Position numbers and translations under genes: made by a program. The notes beneath the pieces are model-generated. The model was not told where the DNA came from. It did no database searches and saw only the letters and a program-made list of their open reading frames with translations. This document shows positions 9,282-45,294 of a stretch of 46,303 nucleotides of DNA, piece after piece. Origin of the DNA: Ramicandelaber brevisporus. Lineage: Eukaryota > Kickxellomycota > Ramicandelaberales > Ramicandelaberaceae. Position 1 is the first letter of the stretch. Each line of letters begins with the position of its first letter. Where the stretch lies: positions 1-46,303 of the forward strand of contig MU602690.1 of the NCBI GenBank assembly GCA_025201865.1, given 5' to 3'.

Positions 9282-11069
9282 ATGGCGAACCACGCAAAGA
9301 CAAAGACACCTTTACCAACCCCAGCTCAGTTTGCTGAGGCCAAGGACGCTGCCAATCTCCAGGTTCTCCGGCGGTTAGATTCGTCGATTGCCAAGATCCA
9401 TGCCACCTCCAGCCACGCCGTTGTGTACCGCTTTGACCAGTCTGCTGGAAATGGCTCATGGGTAAAGTACAATGTAGAAGGTGTCCTGTTTATCATTGAG
9501 CGGAACACTGTGAACGCATCGTTGCCCAAGTATGCACTGTTTGTCATGAACAGAGCCGGATTGGATAACTTTGACTATCCCATTCAGAGCAAGAGCTGTG
9601 TAATGCTGAAGGGCGAGTATATAATGTGCCAACCATCAGCATCTTCATCTAAACATGATGGATTCTTTGGATTGTGGGTTTATGAGCAATCTGACAGAGA
9701 CAGAATTGTGGCTCTAGTTAAACAGCTGTTGGGTGCAAAGCATGCAGCTACAGCTACAGTTCCAGCTCCAGCCACAACAGTGGATACAGTGATTCCGGAG
9801 GACAAGGCGGTGATTTCGCCAAATGTACAAGCGACTGCATCAACCATGTCAACTAACGTGACAAATGCACCAAATGTGGCAGATGGAAAGAATGCGAACC
9901 CACTAATGAACATGCTATTGCAAGCCAAATCTCGTGCAAATACAACTGCCAGCGAGGAACAGCCACCAGCATCGGCCACTCCGACAGAGCCAGCATCAGA
10001 GCCAGAAACCCTGACTCAGAGATTGCTAAAGGCAAAGAATGCAAGTGTAGCTGGTAATGGAACTGCTACTGCTACCACTGCTACTAGTACCACTGCTACT
10101 AGTACCACTGCTGCTCCTGCTCCTGCTGCTACTCCTACATCTGGCTCATCATTGATGGACATGCTCCATCGCGCTCAGCAGAATCAACAGCGAGAAAAGA
10201 GTCCAGAACCCGCTCCATCTCCCAGCGCTAAAGTTAACCATTTGAGTGCTTTGCTGGCCAACATGAAGGCAGCCAGTCCAGTTCCGCAATCAGGTGATCA
10301 ATCAAAGCCACAGCAACAACAGCAACAGCCACAACAGCAACAGCCACAGCAACGCTCCACTTCAGCTACCCCGTTAAATGGTCCGCTCATGGGCCAGTCC
10401 CGTCCTCAGTCCCGCCTTCGTCAGTCACCTATGCTGCCACCAAATGTGCCAACTCCTCCAGCACACATCCATGAGGGTAAACCACTATCACCCTTGCATC
10501 AGCAGCCGCAACAGCCAGGACAACCAGTTCTGCCAGCTCCTGAGCAGCAACATCAGCAGCCAGAACATGCTCAACCGGCTGCACCAATGCCTATCCATCC
10601 ACCCCATCCTCACCTCACCGCCATGTCTCCACCTGTTGGCCAGTCAAGCCCCGGCATGCCTATGTTTAGTCCAAATGGCTCGGCTGTTCCTGGTGCAAGC
10701 TACTCCCCATACGGACAGCCAATGCCACCGTATCACATGTATCCTCACCAGCCCCACCAGCAAGGGTTCACTCCTCCGCCACCTTGGATGGCTGCCGGAA
10801 TGCCTCCAATGCATCCTCATCAACAACATCAGCAACAGCAACAGCAACAGCAGCAGTTTGCGCCAGGTCCATCAGCCGATATCAACGCACTTCGCGAACG
10901 ACTGATCATTGCGCGTCTGGCTAAGCCACCTGCTCCAGCATCCATGCTACCATCGCAGCAAATGACCCGCTCCCAATTCCAAGACGCAATCATCAAACTG
11001 CTTCAAACCGATGTCTCCGTCACCGACATGCTCTATGCGGTATACCTCGAGCAGAAGGCTCGTAACTAA
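9282..11069 (+). CDS. DCP1: mRNA-decapping enzyme subunit 1 (DCP1) with C-terminal trimerisation-like domain
   Basis: This 595-residue protein is the activating partner of the decapping nuclease DCP2. Residues about 15-152 form the EVH1-like domain: NLQVLRRLDSSIAKIHATSS, the VVYRFD strand, GSWVKYNVEGVLFIIER, YALFVMNRAGLDNF and the closing helix FGLWVYEQSDRDRIVALVKQ. The middle is disordered (Pro, Gln, Ala, Thr) but holds four short leucine motifs at about 207-216, 243-252, 290-299 and 320-329. The end (about 553-592; ASMLPSQQMTRSQFQDAIIK then LLQTDVSVTDMLYAVYL) resembles the C-terminal trimerisation domain of animal and plant DCP1, which budding- and fission-yeast proteins lack. The ATG at 9282 is the first in frame after a pyrimidine-rich leader. 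The gene is convergent with the uS12m gene, 112 bases away. The DCP1 identity is firm; the C-terminal domain call rests on motif similarity. Confidence 0.92.
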   Translation: MANHAKTKTPLPTPAQFAEAKDAANLQVLRRLDSSIAKIHATSSHAVVYRFDQSAGNGSWVKYNVEGVLFIIERNTVNASLPKYALFVMNRAGLDNFDYPIQSKSCVMLKGEYIMCQPSASSSKHDGFFGLWVYEQSDRDRIVALVKQLLGAKHAATATVPAPATTVDTVIPEDKAVISPNVQATASTMSTNVTNAPNVADGKNANPLMNMLLQAKSRANTTASEEQPPASATPTEPASEPETLTQRLLKAKNASVAGNGTATATTATSTTATSTTAAPAPAATPTSGSSLMDMLHRAQQNQQREKSPEPAPSPSAKVNHLSALLANMKAASPVPQSGDQSKPQQQQQQPQQQQPQQRSTSATPLNGPLMGQSRPQSRLRQSPMLPPNVPTPPAHIHEGKPLSPLHQQPQQPGQPVLPAPEQQHQQPEHAQPAAPMPIHPPHPHLTAMSPPVGQSSPGMPMFSPNGSAVPGASYSPYGQPMPPYHMYPHQPHQQGFTPPPPWMAAGMPPMHPHQQHQQQQQQQQQFAPGPSADINALRERLIIARLAKPPAPASMLPSQQMTRSQFQDAIIKLLQTDVSVTDMLYAVYLEQKARN

Positions 11070-12323: not shown

Positions 12324-14315
12324 TTAATCACTATAGTCACTTGAAACTAGTTCATCGCCATCATCATCGACATCACATTCGCTGTTAAGCTGAGCTATCG
12401 AGTTATTTGGTTCGATAGTGTTGCTGGTGACTGTGTCCAGTCGAGTTATTAAAAAACACGACGTGTATATTTTCTCATAAAGTAATTGCAGTACGAGAGC
12501 AGGAGCTGTCAATTTTTGTTCACCTCTATGTTCTTTGTACTGATGCTGATATCTAGATCCATTAGTGGAACAGCAATAACCACAGTCTGATGCAACACAC
12601 AGCCAGCCGCGAACAATATCTGGATGCCACCATTGGTATGGGTCGTTGACAGCCGATGCGAGAAGTGTGTTGCTAGTGTGTTGATTAGTATGGGGGTTGG
12701 CACTTGCATTTATTGCACTCTCCGGGAGAGCAGAGTTGTCAATAGACTTCTCGTCATATCCATGCTTCTGTTGTAGATGAGTCAGCAGACATTCTGGCAT
12801 CAATCGACATTCGTGACAAACAAACACTCCAATGGTAGTATGATAGCCACAACGAACTCCATTCACATAAAAATCGTCCACCTTTAAATACAACCGGATG
12901 CGTTTTCTCCTCTTGATAATTTGCTTCTGTTGCTGCTGATAATAGTCGTCATCACTATTAGTACGTTTCTGTTTCATCGATGTTTTATGAGTCTTTAGAA
13001 TATGTTTACGAGTATTGCAAATCATTTTGTACGTCATTTCACAATCTGAAATTGGACATGACCATCGATCATCTGCAGACTGACGACTGAGAGCGAAAGT
13101 GTTACCTTGTACAGTAATTACAGCTTCAAGGTTGTGCTCACGCCGATGTGTGCTAAGCTGACCAGTTGAGTTGAAGAAACGTCCACAATCTGGATACTCA
13201 CATCTCCATTGTAGTTTCTGATTGGATGCTTCCGTGGCCTCATTCTGGCTGACATCATTCTCATTCTCATCCTGAGCGATCAATCCATTGTGACTGTGGT
13301 CGAGCCTGTGCCGATTCGTGTTGTTCCTATTCGTTGTGACATGGTCAATGCGAGCTATGAGAAAGCACGAAATGTATGTTTTCGCATACACAAGGTGTAG
13401 AATGAGCGCTGGGACAGTTGTTATCCGTTCACCTTGATGAACTTTTCTCTTGTGATTATTCTTATTCGTACCTGAATGCCCACAATAACAACAATCAGAA
13501 GTAACACACAGCCAGCCTCGAACAATATCCTGATGCTGCTGCTGATAAGGCTTGAGAATGGCTGCTGCGAGATGCGGGTTATTGGTATGCTGATTGATAT
13601 TGGGATCAGCATTAGCATTTACTGCACTTTTAGGCAGAACAGAGCTGTCAATCGTTTTCTCATCATATCCGTGTTTCTGCTGTAAATGAGTGAGCAGACA
13701 TTCTGGTACCAGTCGACAGTCGTGACAAATAAACGCTCCAGTTGAATTGTGATAACCACAGCGAACTCCATTCACGTTAAAGTTATCCACACTAAGGAAG
13801 CGATGTTTAGGCCGAGACCTCTGAGCTGGAAACTGCTGATGTAGCTGCTGTTGTTTCAGAATATTATCATGACATGCTCGTATATGTTTACGTAAACCAT
13901 CAACTGCTTTATATGTCACTTCACAGTCTGGAACGGGACATGGCCATCGGTCATCTAACGACTGCCGAGTCAGAATGTAAGCCTTTCCATGTATGGTGAG
14001 ATCTGTTTGGAGTCTGTGCTCGTGTTGATGTCTTCCCAGATAACCAGTTGAAGTGAAACTACGACCACATTCTGGATGTTTGCAGATGAACTGTCGCTGA
14101 TTCTTGAGTGCTTCTGCAGTCTGATACTGGCCATCGTCACTCTCGGATTTGACGTCGTCTTCGTCGCTGTCAATATCCGAGGCAGACTCAACTTTGGTGT
14201 CAATGTCTGAAGTATGTTGTTCGAGTTTGATATCACTTGTTGAGAGACTCGGTTCGAGCTTGACTTGCACGTCGACTGCTGCAGTTGGTTCTGTTTTGAT
14301 CTTCACGGTCGACAT
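12324..14315 (-). CDS. C2H2 zinc-finger protein made of a duplicated four-finger block
   Basis: This 663-residue protein has an acidic N-terminus (1-65) followed by two homologous blocks, residues 74-325 and 369-626. Each block has the same order: a C2H2 finger (C78, C83, H96, H100; copy C372, C377, H390, H394), a second finger after DDRWPCP/DDRWSCP (C126, C131, H144, H149; copy C420, C425, H438, H443), a VNGVRCGYH lead into CHDC/CHEC and LLTHLQQKHGYDEK (C197, C200, H210, H215; copy C500, C503, H513, H518), and a DIVRGWLC segment with Cys and paired His near 270-293 and 573-596. The last two modules recall the zinc-binding parts of the fungal OrsD-like (DUF3505) family, but only loosely. It is probably a nuclear DNA-binding protein; no target can be inferred. 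The region is more A+T-rich than its neighbours. The ATG at 14313-14315 is the first in frame. Confidence 0.8.
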   Translation of the reverse strand: MSTVKIKTEPTAAVDVQVKLEPSLSTSDIKLEQHTSDIDTKVESASDIDSDEDDVKSESDDGQYQTAEALKNQRQFICKHPECGRSFTSTGYLGRHQHEHRLQTDLTIHGKAYILTRQSLDDRWPCPVPDCEVTYKAVDGLRKHIRACHDNILKQQQLHQQFPAQRSRPKHRFLSVDNFNVNGVRCGYHNSTGAFICHDCRLVPECLLTHLQQKHGYDEKTIDSSVLPKSAVNANADPNINQHTNNPHLAAAILKPYQQQHQDIVRGWLCVTSDCCYCGHSGTNKNNHKRKVHQGERITTVPALILHLVYAKTYISCFLIARIDHVTTNRNNTNRHRLDHSHNGLIAQDENENDVSQNEATEASNQKLQWRCEYPDCGRFFNSTGQLSTHRREHNLEAVITVQGNTFALSRQSADDRWSCPISDCEMTYKMICNTRKHILKTHKTSMKQKRTNSDDDYYQQQQKQIIKRRKRIRLYLKVDDFYVNGVRCGYHTTIGVFVCHECRLMPECLLTHLQQKHGYDEKSIDNSALPESAINASANPHTNQHTSNTLLASAVNDPYQWWHPDIVRGWLCVASDCGYCCSTNGSRYQHQYKEHRGEQKLTAPALVLQLLYEKIYTSCFLITRLDTVTSNTIEPNNSIAQLNSECDVDDDGDELVSSDYSD

Positions 14316-15729: not shown

Positions 15730-16992
15730 TTAAAAGAAGCTGGCAAAGACAACAGCAACGGCAGCCATGGCATAGGTCGCAGAGTTTGACGAAACGAGTG
15801 CAGAATTGCCATCTGGCTGCATACCATCCACAGCGCCATCGTTTCCACGGCGTGCTGCATCTCCGCCATTGTTGCCAGAAGCCGCATCATCACTGTTGAT
15901 TTCAGCAATACCCTTTCTTCCGCTACCTCTGCCAGCGGCACCACCATCAGCCGAGGTTGTCGACATGGGCTCATTTACAGATTGTGCCATCAACATCTGC
16001 CTGCCGACACCCGTGATTCCAGCAATCCAGTCTGCGTAGTGTGCCACATGAGTATAGAACGCAACTATCTCGCCAGAACCGCACAATGGATGACTGCTAT
16101 GGCTGGCCGTATCTCCAAAGCTTGTTAGTCCAACCAGCGTTGCCACCCTGGTCGGCTCCGCCGATCTATCGTTTCTGACCGTTTCCATCGTAACCAATGG
16201 ACCGCCACTGTCACCATAGCAAGTATCGCGTCCTGGAGTGTTCGCAGTGCACACAACATTGGCGTCGCTGTTTGTAAACTCTGGCATTACACGCCTGCAA
16301 GACATCTCATCGCCCGTTTGAATCATCACGTGTTTGAGTGTTGGAGATGCCGACATCATGTCGTTCGTTGTCTGTCCCCAGCCCAGTGCGACAACTTGCG
16401 TTTGTGGAGTCGTCATCGACATTCTCGAGATTCGGGCTGGCTGGACATTGGGACCGAATGCCACTGGCTGCGACAATCGCAACAGTGCAATGTCATTGTG
16501 GAGATTGGTTGGATTCCACTCGTCATGAACTGTAATTTGGTCAGCGCGCGCCTGCTGCATAGAGTTGACGTTTTCACCACCATAGCGCACCAAGATGTCT
16601 GCTGGGTTCAACTTCTGAGACGACTCTGCTTTGGTGAGACAGTGAGCTGCTGTAACAACATAGCTATTTGTGATCAATGATCCAACACAGTAGAAGCCTT
16701 GAGTTGGAGTGGTGTGTATGGTGAGATGAACCGCAAACGGAAACTGGCCCTTGCCAGAATCGGAGCCGCCAATGATGTGCGTTGTTGGGCCAGTGTGAGG
16801 CTGCTGTTGCGATTGAGGCTGTTGCTTCTGAAGGTGGGAGAACGTGACCTGGTCAATGTTTTCAACCATTTGGATTGGAGGGACTCGTCTGATGCCGACA
16901 GCTTTGGCATTTGCAGTGGGTGAATTGCTGAAGAGGAGTGTGGCTGTTGATAGAGCCATGGCAAATGTCGATGAAACCATGTTGGTTCGCAT
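15730..16992 (-). CDS. Secreted trypsin-like serine protease (S1) with probable GPI anchor
   Basis: This 420-residue protein has an N-terminal signal peptide (hydrophobic 9-22, then Ser/Ala-rich to about 30), a propeptide to about 72, and an S1 domain beginning IIGG (73-76). The triad is complete: H117 in TAAHC, D167 in NDIALL and S262 in GDSGGP. D256, six residues before the catalytic Ser, matches trypsin D189 and predicts cleavage after Lys or Arg. C102 and C118 fit the conserved Cys42-Cys58 bridge. After the domain (about residue 325) comes a Gly/Ser/Asn-rich spacer and a terminal hydrophobic segment (about 405-420), the pattern of a GPI-anchor signal. The protein is expected at the cell surface or secreted. 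The residue before IIGG is His, not Arg or Lys, so activation may differ from classical trypsinogens. The ATG at 16990-16992 is used; a second Met at residue 5 is equally possible. Confidence 0.93.
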   Translation of the reverse strand: MRTNMVSSTFAMALSTATLLFSNSPTANAKAVGIRRVPPIQMVENIDQVTFSHLQKQQPQSQQQPHTGPTTHIIGGSDSGKGQFPFAVHLTIHTTPTQGFYCVGSLITNSYVVTAAHCLTKAESSQKLNPADILVRYGGENVNSMQQARADQITVHDEWNPTNLHNDIALLRLSQPVAFGPNVQPARISRMSMTTPQTQVVALGWGQTTNDMMSASPTLKHVMIQTGDEMSCRRVMPEFTNSDANVVCTANTPGRDTCYGDSGGPLVTMETVRNDRSAEPTRVATLVGLTSFGDTASHSSHPLCGSGEIVAFYTHVAHYADWIAGITGVGRQMLMAQSVNEPMSTTSADGGAAGRGSGRKGIAEINSDDAASGNNGGDAARRGNDGAVDGMQPDGNSALVSSNSATYAMAAVAVVFASFF

Positions 16993-39279: not shown

Positions 39280-40152
39280 TTACTTGCTTTGATCTCGTTG
39301 GTTTATCGGCTTGCCAGGGACAGCTGCAGTAGCAGTGGCAGTGGAAGCAGACGCGGTGGCGGCAGCAGAAGCAGATGACTTGCTTGGAGCTGGAGCTGGA
39401 GTGGATGATTTCTTGATGGCGCTTTTCAGTTCCGTGCCAACACGAGCAGCCAACTCCTCGATTGACGACAGCCTCTGACTCAACTCATCAAACGAAGCCG
39501 TCTTCTCCTGCAGGAGTCGCTGGAGAATGGTCTTCTTCCGGGCAAGTGCACTGCGCATCGTCTCACATCGCTTGCGCTCCTTGAGTTCGTATTGCAATCG
39601 CTCAACCAGAATCTGGTGTTCATCGGTCGGTACTTCTCGTCTTTGTCTTTTTGAACCGTCATTGTCAGCGTGCTCAGTGTCCGCATCATCTCGCTTCCGT
39701 TTTGCTTCCGCTTTTTCGCCGGCTTCTTCGGCTGCATAAATGTCATGGATGTCGTCTAGCTCAATGTTTTGATAGATGGTTTTGAGGTTCTCAGACTGTT
39801 GAATCTCCATTACAATGTGGTCGCGTTCATACACTAGATTCTGCAGTGTAACCATGAGTTTATCCATCTTGTTTCGTGCATCCAGTGCATTGTCGCGCTC
39901 CCGACGCAGTCTCACTGTAGCATCGCGGTTCAAGTGTCTCAACTTTAGAAACAGCAGCAGTGGATCTTCAGCCGTTTCATTGACATCAGCTACTGCTGTT
40001 GCTGCCGTTGTTACTGCTGCTGCTGCGGTTGCCGCTGGTAGTTGGCTGTCGCCTAGAAGATGGACTGTGCGTTGCTTGATGGCTCTGCGCAGTCGCTCGC
40101 AAGTGTTCGTTACACTCTGCAGCGCTGGAGACTGTTGATCGTCGGTCATCAT
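39280..40152 (-). CDS. THOC5: THO complex subunit 5 (THOC5) homologue
   Basis: This 290-residue protein matches the N-terminal coiled-coil half of THOC5/FMIP. The core LLLFLKLRHLNRDATVRLRR, RERDNALDARNKMDKLMVTL and LQNLVYERDHIVMEIQQSE parallels the animal KKLNRLAHIRLKKGRD and QNLLYEVMHLQKEI segments. LVERLQYELKERKRCE parallels LARLDWELEQRKRL. THO couples transcription to mRNA export in the nucleus. An Arg/Lys-rich cluster (EAKRKRDD, GSKRQRREV) after the coiled coil is a likely nuclear localisation signal, and the end is Ala/Ser/Thr-rich. Animal THOC5 is about 680 residues, so the C-terminal half is absent. The ATG at 40150-40152 is chosen; the upstream hydrophobic extension overlaps the divergent NUDT21 leader and has no ATG. 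Confidence 0.82.
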   Translation of the reverse strand: MMTDDQQSPALQSVTNTCERLRRAIKQRTVHLLGDSQLPAATAAAAVTTAATAVADVNETAEDPLLLFLKLRHLNRDATVRLRRERDNALDARNKMDKLMVTLQNLVYERDHIVMEIQQSENLKTIYQNIELDDIHDIYAAEEAGEKAEAKRKRDDADTEHADNDGSKRQRREVPTDEHQILVERLQYELKERKRCETMRSALARKKTILQRLLQEKTASFDELSQRLSSIEELAARVGTELKSAIKKSSTPAPAPSKSSASAAATASASTATATAAVPGKPINQRDQSK

Positions 40153-41872: not shown

Positions 41873-43477
41873 ATGAGGAACAACGACGAACACGAGCAGC
41901 GAGATGAGCTCCAGCAGCAACAGCTCCAGTGGCCGACTCTCCCTCTGCTGTACTTGCCAATCGAACTAGCAGAGGAGACCAGCTTGTACTTTGGCGGACG
42001 AACTGCAGCCAGACTGCTCAGAGTTAGCCGTTCTTTTCACAGCTTGTTCCTTCCTCGCGTTTGGGTCGAGTTGCGTACTTTTGCTGGCATCAGAGATACT
42101 GGAGTGAAGCGACATATGCTGGAGAAGTACGGCCATCTTGTGCGCATCGTCAACCTTACCTATTACAAAGCTGATTGGTTCAACTTCGACTGGTTGCCAT
42201 TTGTCAAACATGCAGTGCATTTGAACACCAAAAATTATTGCAAATCCACCGCTGAAATAGCTGAAATACTGATCAAGTTGATCATGCAGTCCGAGATGCT
42301 ACGGACATTGAACTTACGCCTTGATAAATATGAGCCACGTCTAAAACTTGACGAGTTGGCAGCTGCAATCAATGGACTCAATTATTTGGAGTGCATCATA
42401 TGTGACTTTGGGGTTCAAAGTAATCCAGAGGAGGAAAAAAGTGAGTGGAGACGAGTTGCCAGCTTTGTTGATTTGTTACATCCTTCAAAGAAATCCAAGC
42501 TGAGATTGAATATGAAACTTAACACAGTTGTAAATGCGATGGATGTACGAGCATTGGCACCGTACATTGTTGAACTCAGGAAATACGGAGATGTTGTTTG
42601 CACAACGGGATTGGCTCATGAATTATTTAGTGTTAGAGACAGTAATAGACAGCAGCTGGTGTTTCCACAGCTAAAAGTACTATTAATGGGAACGTGTTGT
42701 TTCAGTCTTGAGCATTATGATGTAAAGAGCATTACAACCAATCAACTCCCGCAACTAGAGCGTATTTACCTTCGTTTTGGCTCATTCGATGTATTAGACC
42801 GTGGTGAATCAAACGAGAATGAACATGAAGTGCATTACTGGAAATCTGAACACTCTAGTTTAGCTCACATTATTGTTCCTTCCCAGCGCTGGCAATATGT
42901 GACAGAGTTGACCATTGGCTACATTCCCTCTTCGATTCTGATGGATACCATCAGTCTTTGTCCGCAGCTCCGGCGACTTAATACTAGAGTGGGAATCTCT
43001 GAAGTACCAGCTGAGAATGACGCTTCAAGATACAATCACGATGAAGTCCAACTTGACGCTATTCTGGATCGTCTGCCCTACCTAGTGAATTTCACAATTG
43101 GAGGGGGACACTCAAGACTTGTTGCCGATCCAGCTGCGATTCCAGCGAAACGTCGATATGACATTGATATCACCATTGCCTTTGCCAGCCATATGTCAAT
43201 TGCACCATCGGCGGCTGTATATATTCTGCAAATGCCACAGTTGACCGAATTGATTTTTAACGATGGCGTGTTCGTGGATGTTGATGAGACCATTCGGTTG
43301 CTTCGAGGCAGTGCTGGAACGTGTGGAGTCAAAGAGTTCCATTGGCATTCAACTGTGTGGAATCAGGATTTGGCACTCGCTGTAACGGAGAAGATGCCGC
43401 GGCTGGAGCGATTCGTGGGACGTAATTGCCCAGAAGATTATCGTGACGCATTTAACGTAAAATGCCAGCCCAATTAA
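41873..43477 (+). CDS. F-box-like leucine-rich-repeat protein, lineage-specific family (full length)
   Basis: This 534-residue protein opens with a divergent F-box-like segment, LPLLYLPIELAEETSLYF followed by RVSRSFHSLFLPRVWVELRT, and a family-typical KYGHLVRIVNL. The rest is an irregular leucine-rich solenoid (for example LRTLNLRLDKY, LVFPQLKVLLMG, LPQLERIYLRFG, CPQLRRLNTRVG, MPQLTELIFNDG, MPRLERFVGRNC). F-box proteins are substrate receptors of SCF ubiquitin ligases; the Skp1-binding consensus is weak here, so the SCF role is inferred. Two further loci at 43785-45905 share the same N-terminal motif, so this is a local paralogue group. The ATG at 41873 is used; upstream sequence in frame lacks ATG. 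Confidence 0.75.
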   Translation: MRNNDEHEQRDELQQQQLQWPTLPLLYLPIELAEETSLYFGGRTAARLLRVSRSFHSLFLPRVWVELRTFAGIRDTGVKRHMLEKYGHLVRIVNLTYYKADWFNFDWLPFVKHAVHLNTKNYCKSTAEIAEILIKLIMQSEMLRTLNLRLDKYEPRLKLDELAAAINGLNYLECIICDFGVQSNPEEEKSEWRRVASFVDLLHPSKKSKLRLNMKLNTVVNAMDVRALAPYIVELRKYGDVVCTTGLAHELFSVRDSNRQQLVFPQLKVLLMGTCCFSLEHYDVKSITTNQLPQLERIYLRFGSFDVLDRGESNENEHEVHYWKSEHSSLAHIIVPSQRWQYVTELTIGYIPSSILMDTISLCPQLRRLNTRVGISEVPAENDASRYNHDEVQLDAILDRLPYLVNFTIGGGHSRLVADPAAIPAKRRYDIDITIAFASHMSIAPSAAVYILQMPQLTELIFNDGVFVDVDETIRLLRGSAGTCGVKEFHWHSTVWNQDLALAVTEKMPRLERFVGRNCPEDYRDAFNVKCQPN

Positions 43478-43784: not shown

Positions 43785-45294
43785 CTATGCGAACTTGATA
43801 TGCGGATATCTTGCATAAATCTCTTCTTTTTGTGCAGGTCCGGTTGATACATGTAGCTTTGTCGCGCTTGCAAAGGCTTGAATCAGAGTTATCATGTGCT
43901 CGCTAAAGGGTTCATCCGCTGCAGCCGAAAACGCTACAACGTCAAGATTAACCAGCGGAGTCTTGGCAGCCTGGCGAACACCATACCTCGCAACATCCTC
44001 TTGGATCTGACAATTGTTTATAGATAGTGCTCTGAGGCATGGTGATGCTGTAAAAATGAATCGCAACAAATCAATCGATATTACTGTGAACTGAACGCTA
44101 ACACTCCTGATACGACTTGTGGCAATGGATACCTGCTTTGGCTGGGAGTAAATAATCTTTGATGATGGCAAGTTCAAATCCACAAGACGCAGCAGTCGGG
44201 ACCGGATGACTTCAAGATCCAGCGGATATTTGTCCATGCAACAATTCAATATTCGAACATTTGGTGTAGCTGAAAGAGCAAAGTCCAATTCCTCTGACGA
44301 GAAGCGATCAGTAATGCTAAGACCGATAAGCTGTGACCAATCAGATTTAAATATGCGCAATAGAATCTGCCCTGGACTCCTATTACACTCTCTGGAACAT
44401 AGTGATAACCCAAGGTCTGTGAGGGCCGGGAAGTTTGCAGGAATCAGCGCAGCAAACTCCTGTGTAGCTTGATGGAGACAGCACACTGGAATCGACAACC
44501 TCGTCAAATGTGGGATATAAACACCATGTTGATGACCAAGCAACGGTCCCAAATGAGAGCTCAAACAGTGATCCTCTCGGCCACTCAAAATTTCAATCTC
44601 AGTATATCCTACCGATGACTGTGCCCAGTGGTCAGGTTTCATAACATCTTGCAAGCTATAAACCGCGTGCAATCGAAGCCGATGTAAATTGCGTACTTTC
44701 CTCATGATTGACGGAATTACCTGCCCAATGACACTCGAAGCAATCATGCTAACAGTTTCGACCTGACCACTTTGTGACTCATTATTCAGCCATTCAATAA
44801 AACCGTGTGGCAATGATGGCATGCTATATTCACGCGAACCCTTCACTGCTCGGAGATTGCGTAGAGTTGCAAACTGTTGATAGTTGATGTCTCTGTAGTA
44901 ATCGCTTTCAAAATTCGAGCCTGAGATACATGACATTTGGTACAAGCTCTCCGAGGTTAACAGAGTCATGAATCGGTCTGTCAACAACAAGGAGGCGAAC
45001 CAAGTGGCCATATCGCTGCCATGCCGATGGACGAATGTAGAGTCTGGTGCTCTTGGGGAGCATAAGCCGGGCACAGTGCATCATGCGCCAAACAGCGCGC
45101 GAGAACACGTCGTGGAAGTCCCGACTGACGCGTATCAGCTTCACAGCGTCTTTTCGAGCGAGGAAATTGCCGAGATACTCGCGCAGATCATATGGCAGTG
45201 CGGCAACGTCGAACAATGGCTTTCGCGAAACAGAAGCGGCAGCCTTCGCAGCAGCCCTCGCGGCCTGGACTCGACGGACTCGAACTTTGCCCAT
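43785..45294 (-). pseudogene. F-box-like leucine-rich-repeat gene interrupted by a frameshift
   Basis: Two overlapping frames together make one family member. The first (45294 to 44908, ATG at 45292-45294) encodes an Ala/Arg-rich start, then VAALPYDLREYLGNFLAR, KLIRVSRDFHDVFSRAVWRM and RYGHLVRLLVV, and stops with YLRLEF at 44908-44910. The second frame continues with ESDYYRDINYQQFATLRNLR and runs open to 43785 through about 370 residues of leucine-rich solenoid. The switch falls at a four-base A run (44910-44913 on the plus strand), and loss of one of those bases would join the frames. The alternatives are a sequencing slip or a tiny 37-base GT-AG intron just there (gtatct...ctacag). Because the downstream frame is intact, the break is either recent or not real. 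It sits divergently next to the truncated copy at 45495. Confidence 0.65.

What the first reader, a model, noticed from the sequence alone, without database searches (positions are those of the whole stretch)
9900..11069. A fungal DCP1 with an animal/plant-type C-terminal trimerisation domain and four leucine motifs
The sequence shows an EVH1 domain, four short Leu-rich motifs (PLMNMLLQAK, LTQRLLKAK, SLMDMLHRAQ, HLSALLANMK) and a C-terminal segment (about 553-592) resembling the DCP1 trimerisation domain. The family literature describes that domain in animals and plants and its absence from yeast DCP1. Helical leucine motifs that bind Edc3 are on DCP1 in animals but on DCP2 in yeasts. If the motifs are genuine, this fungus keeps the ancestral arrangement, and the yeast layout is a later rewiring. 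Four motifs in one DCP1 would be unusually many.
Basis: partly seen in the sequence, partly recalled or inferred. Interest (0 to 1): 0.75.

Follow-up and report, generated by a model that had tools for sequence, protein, structure and literature searches.

The report
Fungal DCP1 with animal-type tail
A fungus carries a version of the mRNA-decapping helper protein DCP1 that ends in the animal-type three-way joining domain and has several short leucine motifs, a layout that the reviews read here describe for animals and contrast with yeast.

Summary
Window 9282-11069 (+) is one intronless DCP1 ORF of 595 aa. It has an EVH1 domain (PF06058, E 5e-28) and a long P/A/Q-rich linker; its last 35 residues match the DCP1 trimerisation domain PF16741 (E 8.7e-5 whole protein, 3.2e-6 on the tail; at the curated cut-off), and the only PDB match of the tail is the human DCP1A trimer domain (E 0.031). 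Five copies stand against 0.005 expected in shuffles (pattern chosen after seeing them) and none in 29 other long frames of this genome. The assembly also encodes EDC3 and PAT1, known readers of such motifs. Not shown: that the motifs bind EDC3, that the tail trimerises, or that the layout is ancestral. No DCP2 was found in this assembly, so whether DCP2 lacks the motifs is open, and no relatives were reachable. Best reading: a fungal DCP1 of animal-type layout that acts as a trimeric, multivalent docking hub. A new variant of a known kind; moderate interest.

The parts
9282..11069 (+). DCP1 gene, single exon, 595 aa, stop codon included
   Evidence: ORF from the first ATG after an in-frame stop; only PF06058 match (E <= 0.001) in the 17.9 Mb assembly
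9345..9722 (+). EVH1 domain (residues 22-147); Y49, W60 and W132 align with Drosophila DCP1 aromatics
   Evidence: PF06058 E 5.3e-28, 97.7 bits, cut-off 22.5; PDB matches 2lyd, 2qkl, 5kq1, 4b6h; positions
9900..9929 (+). leucine motif 1, PLMNMLLQAK (residues 207-216)
   Evidence: pattern L..[LMR]L..[AM][KQR]
10011..10037 (+). leucine motif 2, LTQRLLKAK (residues 244-252)
10149..10178 (+). leucine motif 3, SLMDMLHRAQ (residues 290-299)
10239..10268 (+). leucine motif 4, HLSALLANMK (residues 320-329)
   Evidence: AF2 model of residues 529-595, mean pLDDT 62.8
10962..11066 (+). C-terminal trimerisation domain (PF16741; profile match residues 561-591, protein ends at 595)
   Evidence: E 3.2e-6 on residues 529-595; 27 bits, over cut-off, six-frame; only PDB match 2wx3 human DCP1A, E 0.031; 12 of 34 residues identical, 0 of 5000 shuffles reach the ungapped score

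Best explanation
This is the single DCP1 of a fungus, with the layout known from animals. Its EVH1 domain docks on DCP2 and on proline-rich activators; its C-terminal helical domain joins three DCP1 chains; and leucine-rich helical motifs in the disordered linker bind the LSm domain of EDC3. With 4-5 motifs per chain, a trimer would offer 12-15 docking sites to EDC3, whose YjeF_N domain dimerises in known EDC3 proteins. DCP1 would then be the multivalent hub that gathers the decapping machinery and nucleates P-bodies, the job that Dcp2 (and Pdc1) motif arrays do in fission yeast. Shown here: domains, motifs, their excess over chance, and the EDC3 and PAT1 genes. Inferred: trimerisation (strong, from homology), EDC3 binding (moderate), hub role and ancestry (weak).
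For: EVH1 and trimer-domain profiles in the expected order in one ORF. Five copies of one motif pattern; 0 in the 29 other stop-to-stop frames of at least 300 aa among 30 examined in the window and four fetched regions. EDC3 in the same assembly: FDF (E 2e-7) and YjeF_N (E 6e-17), and an N-terminal stretch that models as an LSm-like barrel (single-sequence AF2, pLDDT 63 in the best of five models, 43.6-48.7 in the rest; 956 Foldseek matches, none at E <= 0.001, best 7e-3; the 50 listed are LSm/Sm proteins and snRNP or spliceosome complexes by title, LSM14 and RAP55 LSm among them, plus two NatC chains). PAT1 (E 7e-61). Literature: the metazoan DCP1 linker holds an HLM that binds EDC3, and its end trimerises (PMC8984151, passages); full-length human DCP1 is a trimer through that domain (PMC13103063, passages); the number of HLMs sets phase separation with dimeric Edc3 (PMC4320757, passages).
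Against: The trimer-domain score is at the cut-off, not above it (22.2 whole protein, 26.8 tail, 27 six-frame; cut-off 27). The single-sequence model of the tail is poor (pLDDT 62.8) and Foldseek found no PDB match for it. None of the motifs fits the yeast core LLx(hydrophobic)L, and a pattern-free repeat search did not pick them out. No relative was found that would show conservation. DCP2, LSM14/SCD6 and EDC4, the scaffold on which trimeric DCP1 works in animals, were not found. In human cells DCP1a without its trimer domain still supported decay, and without its HLM did so in part (PMC11530239, passages). Recombinant human DCP1 did not bind DCP2 stably or stimulate it (PMC13103063, passages), so docking on DCP2 cannot be taken for granted in an animal-type DCP1.
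Confidence: 0.62

Rival explanations
1. The layout is as described but the leucine motifs are lineage-specific (convergent) and say nothing of the ancestor; the trimer domain alone is old.
For: Motifs of this size arise easily, and five copies in one protein look like local expansion. PMC8984151 stresses rapid divergence of such motifs between species. No relatives could be compared.
Against: Motifs 1 and 3 (LMNMLLQAK, LMDMLHRAQ) resemble the human DCP1A motif as I recall its letters (ILEMLSRAK; no call confirms them). The human HLM also lies soon after EVH1, before residue 169 (PMC11530239). Recent DNA duplication is not seen: 8 to 15 of 27 bases identical between motif cores, all 10 pairs.
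Confidence: 0.35
2. The motifs are read by PAT1 (or another helical partner) rather than by the EDC3 LSm domain.
For: PAT1 is present. In budding yeast eight of nine Dcp2 leucine motifs bind Pat1, and none of their deletions affected Edc3 binding (PMC9170289, passages).
Against: The Pat1 motif that binds them is called yeast-specific in PMC8984151; on DCP1 of flies and humans the motif binds EDC3 (same passages).
Confidence: 0.2
3. The C-terminal helices are a decayed remnant of the trimer domain that no longer trimerises.
For: Score only at the cut-off; the protein ends a few residues after the matched stretch (profile positions 4-34 of 43).
Against: 11 of 14 hydrophobic positions of the human stretch stay hydrophobic and the alignment has no gap.
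Confidence: 0.12
4. The motifs are chance clusters of leucine in a low-complexity linker.
For: A pattern-free repeat search is swamped by P/Q-rich matches, with 21 to 109 of 300 shuffles reaching the observed count at its four thresholds. LxxLL alone is not enriched.
Against: 0 of 20,000 shuffles, full or block-wise, reach five copies; 11 of 11 leucines of residues 153-364 lie in the motifs; 0 copies in 29 other frames.
Confidence: 0.04

Closest known systems
Metazoan DCP1 (human DCP1A/DCP1B, Drosophila DCP1)
   Same: EVH1, then an EDC3-binding helical leucine motif, a long disordered linker and a C-terminal trimerisation domain (PMC8984151, PMC13103063; passages)
   Different: PMC8984151 and PMC13103063 describe one such motif per chain; here one motif pattern occurs five times. 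The host is a fungus, and no EDC4 was found.
Yeast Dcp1 (S. cerevisiae, S. pombe)
   Same: EVH1 domain; the N-terminal NLQVL stretch is shared with S. pombe Dcp1
   Different: Yeast Dcp1 is EVH1 alone, with no linker, motifs or trimer domain (PMC8984151)
S. pombe Dcp2 and Pdc1 motif arrays
   Same: Several helical leucine motifs on one chain that could cross-link dimeric Edc3 (PMC4320757)
   Different: There the array sits on Dcp2 (at least seven, PMC4320757) and Pdc1 (at least three, PMC8984151), here on DCP1; none of the motifs here fits the LLx(hydrophobic)L core given for S. cerevisiae Dcp2

Membership tests
DCP1 (PF06058) | EVH1 domain matching the family profile | tested here: met
   97.7 bits, E 5.3e-28, cut-off 22.5
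DCP1 (PF06058) | Binds and activates DCP2 | not testable with these tools
   No DCP2 found in the assembly; binding needs an experiment
DCP1 trimerisation domain (PF16741) | Profile match at the extreme C-terminus | tested here: met
   E 8.7e-5 and 22.2 bits whole protein, E 3.2e-6 and 26.8 bits tail, both under the cut-off of 27; 27 bits, flagged over it, six-frame; 2wx3 the only PDB match of the tail. Borderline: over the cut-off in one of three scorings.
DCP1 trimerisation domain (PF16741) | Helical fold of the solved domain | tested here: inconclusive
   Model has helices 563-574 and 580-594, but pLDDT is 62.8 and Foldseek returned no PDB match
DCP1 trimerisation domain (PF16741) | Forms a trimer | not testable with these tools
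   No multimer prediction available
Helical leucine-rich motif (HLM) | Core LLx(hydrophobic)L as first defined for S. cerevisiae Dcp2 | tested here: not met
   0 matches in the protein; so the motifs are called HLM-like, not HLMs of that definition
Helical leucine-rich motif (HLM) | Short leucine motifs in a linker, more frequent than chance | tested here: met
   5 copies of one pattern, 0 of 20,000 shuffles reach 5; pattern chosen after the fact
Helical leucine-rich motif (HLM) | Binds the LSm domain of EDC3 or the PAT1 C-terminus | not testable with these tools
   EDC3 and PAT1 genes are present; no complex prediction available

The most novel reading that the evidence does not exclude
In this fungus, and by inference in the common ancestor of animals and fungi, the multivalent hub of the decapping machinery is a trimer of DCP1 carrying 12-15 EDC3-binding motifs, not Dcp2; the yeast arrangement, long treated as the reference, with animals as the 'rewired' case, is the derived one.
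Probability: 0.35. Interest if true: 0.62.

Novelty: new variant of a known kind. Interest (0 to 1): 0.45.

Why it matters
Reviews and papers seen here describe the DCP1 tail and its motif as acquired by metazoans or multicellular eukaryotes, with functions 'transferred' from Dcp2, and speak of a 'rewiring' in higher eukaryotes (PMC8984151, PMC11530239, PMC7329352; passages). A fungus with the trimer domain and several motifs on DCP1 turns the direction of that change into a testable question and offers a fungal system for trimeric DCP1. The five-motif array would also be a natural experiment on how valency sets P-body assembly. It is not a new kind of machine, and the domain match alone may already be listed, uncommented, in public domain databases (not checked).

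Tried and rejected
Chance leucine clustering: rejected by shuffles, with the reservations given above. Recent DNA duplication as source of the motifs: not seen; 8 to 15 of 27 bases identical over all 10 pairs of motif cores. EDC4 in the genome: the two weak Ge1_WD40 matches (E 0.0013 and 0.045, under the cut-off) lie in WD40 proteins that I read by eye as Cdc20/Cdh1-like and Elp2-like (ORFs), not EDC4; EDC4_C gave nothing. DCP2: box A profile, no match; DNA pattern for W-(G/S/R/E..)-F-P-(K/R)-G-K, no match; 9 of 9 NUDIX matches read (8, the ninth, L013), none like DCP2 by eye; S. pombe Dcp2 core, three matches, best E 7.7e-4, all at places already among the NUDIX matches; human DCP2 core, none. 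LSM14/SCD6: none. Caveat: the tool says that nothing rang in any control, so they do not show absence; no positive control for DCP2 was run. Since DCP2 and SCD6 are expected in every fungus (recalled), I read this as an incomplete assembly or split genes, not as loss. The second PF16741 match in the genome (C171, E 0.68, with a stop) is noise. Homologue searches: 3 of 3 empty; one search scored 7994 candidates, chosen by shared words, and the protein's low-complexity stretches probably supplied most of those. Viral contigs: 7 pattern matches, no relative. Motif region against PDB: none. A fold of the tail without an alignment was too poor to use.

Papers: PMC8984151, PMC9170289, PMC11530239, PMC13103063, PMC4320757, PMC10590902, PMC7329352 and PMC9962611 were seen as passages only. 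Tritschler 2009 (PNAS) and Fromm 2012 (EMBO J), the primary papers, are not held and are known here through those passages and recall. Literature searches that bear on DCP1 in fungi. No listed title or abstract start reports a trimer domain or leucine motifs in a fungal DCP1; but four lists were cut (20 of 686, 12 of 43, 12 of 18 and 10 of 553), and only open-licence PMC papers are held. So novelty in print is not established.

Full report
What is there. Window 9282-11069 on the + strand is one open frame of 595 residues with an in-frame stop just before its ATG, and so reads as a complete intronless gene. It is the only DCP1 match at E <= 0.001 in the 17.9 Mb, 510-contig assembly. Pfam gives the DCP1 EVH1 domain at residues 22-147 (E 5.3e-28) and the DCP1 C-terminal trimerisation domain, PF16741, at residues 561-591. 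Between them lies a linker of about 410 residues rich in P, A and Q. The finding's coordinates begin at the first motif and so miss the EVH1 domain.

Is the trimer domain real? The whole-protein score is 22.2 bits (E 8.7e-5); the last 67 residues alone give 26.8 bits (E 3.2e-6) against a curated cut-off of 27; the six-frame search of the genome gives 27 and flags it over the cut-off. Against the PDB, the tail matches one chain only, 2wx3, the human DCP1A trimer domain (E 0.031): 34 residues without a gap, 12 identical, 21 identical or similar, 11 of 14 hydrophobic positions kept. No shuffle reaches that ungapped score (0 of 5000 shuffles of residues 529-595; 0 of 500 shuffles of the human stretch). 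The position, at the extreme C-terminus of a DCP1, is the expected one. I take homology as established. A single-sequence AlphaFold model shows helices at 530-547, 563-574 and 580-594, but with mean pLDDT 62.8 and no Foldseek match it adds little. Trimerisation itself is inferred.

Are the leucine motifs real? Five copies occur in residues 153-560 against a mean of 0.0049 in 20,000 shuffles and 0.0036 in 20,000 shuffles within 40-residue blocks; none reaches five. I wrote that pattern after seeing the motifs, so these figures flatter it. Simpler patterns: L..[LM]L (3 seen, mean 0.11) was reached by 5 of 20,000 full and 0 of 20,000 block shuffles; L...L (6 seen, mean 1.2) by 16 of 20,000; LxxLL (1 seen) by 1216 of 20,000. 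All 11 leucines in residues 153-364 lie within the four motifs. Of 30 stop-to-stop frames of at least 300 aa in the window and four fetched regions (any frame, so some are not genes), DCP1 has five copies and the other 29 none. Against: none fits the LLx(hydrophobic)L core of S. cerevisiae Dcp2, and a pattern-free repeat search was dominated by proline- and glutamine-rich stretches and did not pick the motifs out (21 to 109 of 300 shuffles reached the observed counts at its four thresholds). The motif cores share only 8 to 15 of 27 bases, so they are not recent DNA copies. The fifth motif lies in a predicted helix just before the trimer domain and may belong to that domain. I recall the human DCP1A motif as ILEMLSRAK, which would fit motifs 1 and 3 closely; no call confirms those letters.

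Partners in the same genome. EDC3 is present as one frame of 981 residues with FDF (E 2e-7) and YjeF_N (E 6e-17) domains. Its N-terminal stretch has no Pfam LSm match; its best PDB sequence matches are a small nuclear ribonucleoprotein (E 0.01) and an EDC3 chain, 6y3z (E 0.095). A single-sequence model (pLDDT 63 in the best of five, under 50 in the others) gives a small barrel whose 50 listed Foldseek matches of 956 are LSm/Sm proteins, snRNP or spliceosome complexes by title and two NatC chains, best E 7e-3, none at or under 0.001. PAT1 is present. DCP2 was not found by a box A profile, a DNA pattern, inspection of all 9 NUDIX matches, or S. pombe and human DCP2 cores. LSM14/SCD6 and EDC4 were not found either. 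Nothing rang in the controls, so these do not prove absence. Missing DCP2 and SCD6 most likely mean an incomplete assembly or split genes.

Is it a fungus? The window encodes an Svf1 protein with both its domains (E 1e-25 and 1e-19); Svf1 is described from yeast and other fungi (PMC9962611, passages), and its restriction to fungi is recalled. The uS12m protein is nuclear-encoded here and has a mitochondrial chain, 6yw5 (Neurospora crassa by recall), as its second-best PDB match, after a chloroplast protein and close to many bacterial ones, which is weak evidence. Nothing seen speaks against a fungus; the lineage within fungi is not known.

How it most likely works. By homology with animal DCP1, EVH1 docks on DCP2 and on proline-rich activators; residues Y49, W60 and W132 align with Drosophila DCP1 aromatics in 2lyd (that these form the proline-peptide pocket is recalled). 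The tail makes trimers; full-length human DCP1 is a trimer through this domain (PMC13103063), though the same paper finds no stable binding of human DCP1 to DCP2. The linker motifs bind the LSm domain of EDC3, as the motif of fly and human DCP1 does (PMC8984151). In fission yeast the number of such motifs on Dcp2, with dimeric Edc3, sets phase separation (PMC4320757). A DCP1 trimer with 12-15 motifs would make DCP1 the hub here. Only the parts list and the sequence homologies are shown; the binding and the hub role are inferred.

Compared with the known. [quoted passage not shown] others tie the trimer domain to multicellular eukaryotes (PMC11530239) and speak of rewiring in higher eukaryotes (PMC7329352). 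This fungus fits the animal side. If the plant domain is homologous too (recalled), loss in yeasts is simpler than repeated gain. For the short motifs convergence cannot be excluded, as no relative could be fetched. Verdict: observation confirmed, interpretation partly supported, a new variant of a known kind.

Noticed in passing
window 9714-9740: The end of the EVH1 domain itself reads LVKQLLGAK (residues 145-153), which resembles the linker motifs; chance, or the seed from which they were copied.
   Followed up: no
whole assembly G000: DCP1, EDC3 and PAT1 are found but DCP2, LSM14/SCD6 and EDC4 are not; probably assembly gaps or split genes, but a lineage without recognisable DCP2 would be remarkable.
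   Followed up: partly
window 12324-14315 (-): A 663-aa protein that by eye consists of two similar halves with C2H2-like zinc-finger stretches; Pfam gives only matches below cut-off (FOXP-CC, ZNF512_C2HC). Looks like an internal duplication.
   Followed up: no
window 40060-40152: Start of a CFIm25-like NUDIX_2 ORF (+) overlaps the start of a THOC5-like ORF (-) by 93 bases if the first ATGs are used.
   Followed up: no
window 41873-43477 (+) and 43785-45011 (-): Two proteins of 534 and 408 aa with no Pfam match at E <= 0.001; they look like leucine-rich F-box-type proteins by eye.
   Followed up: no
window 15730-16992 (-): A trypsin-family serine protease (E 9e-44) with a hydrophobic N-terminus by eye, probably secreted.
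   Followed up: no
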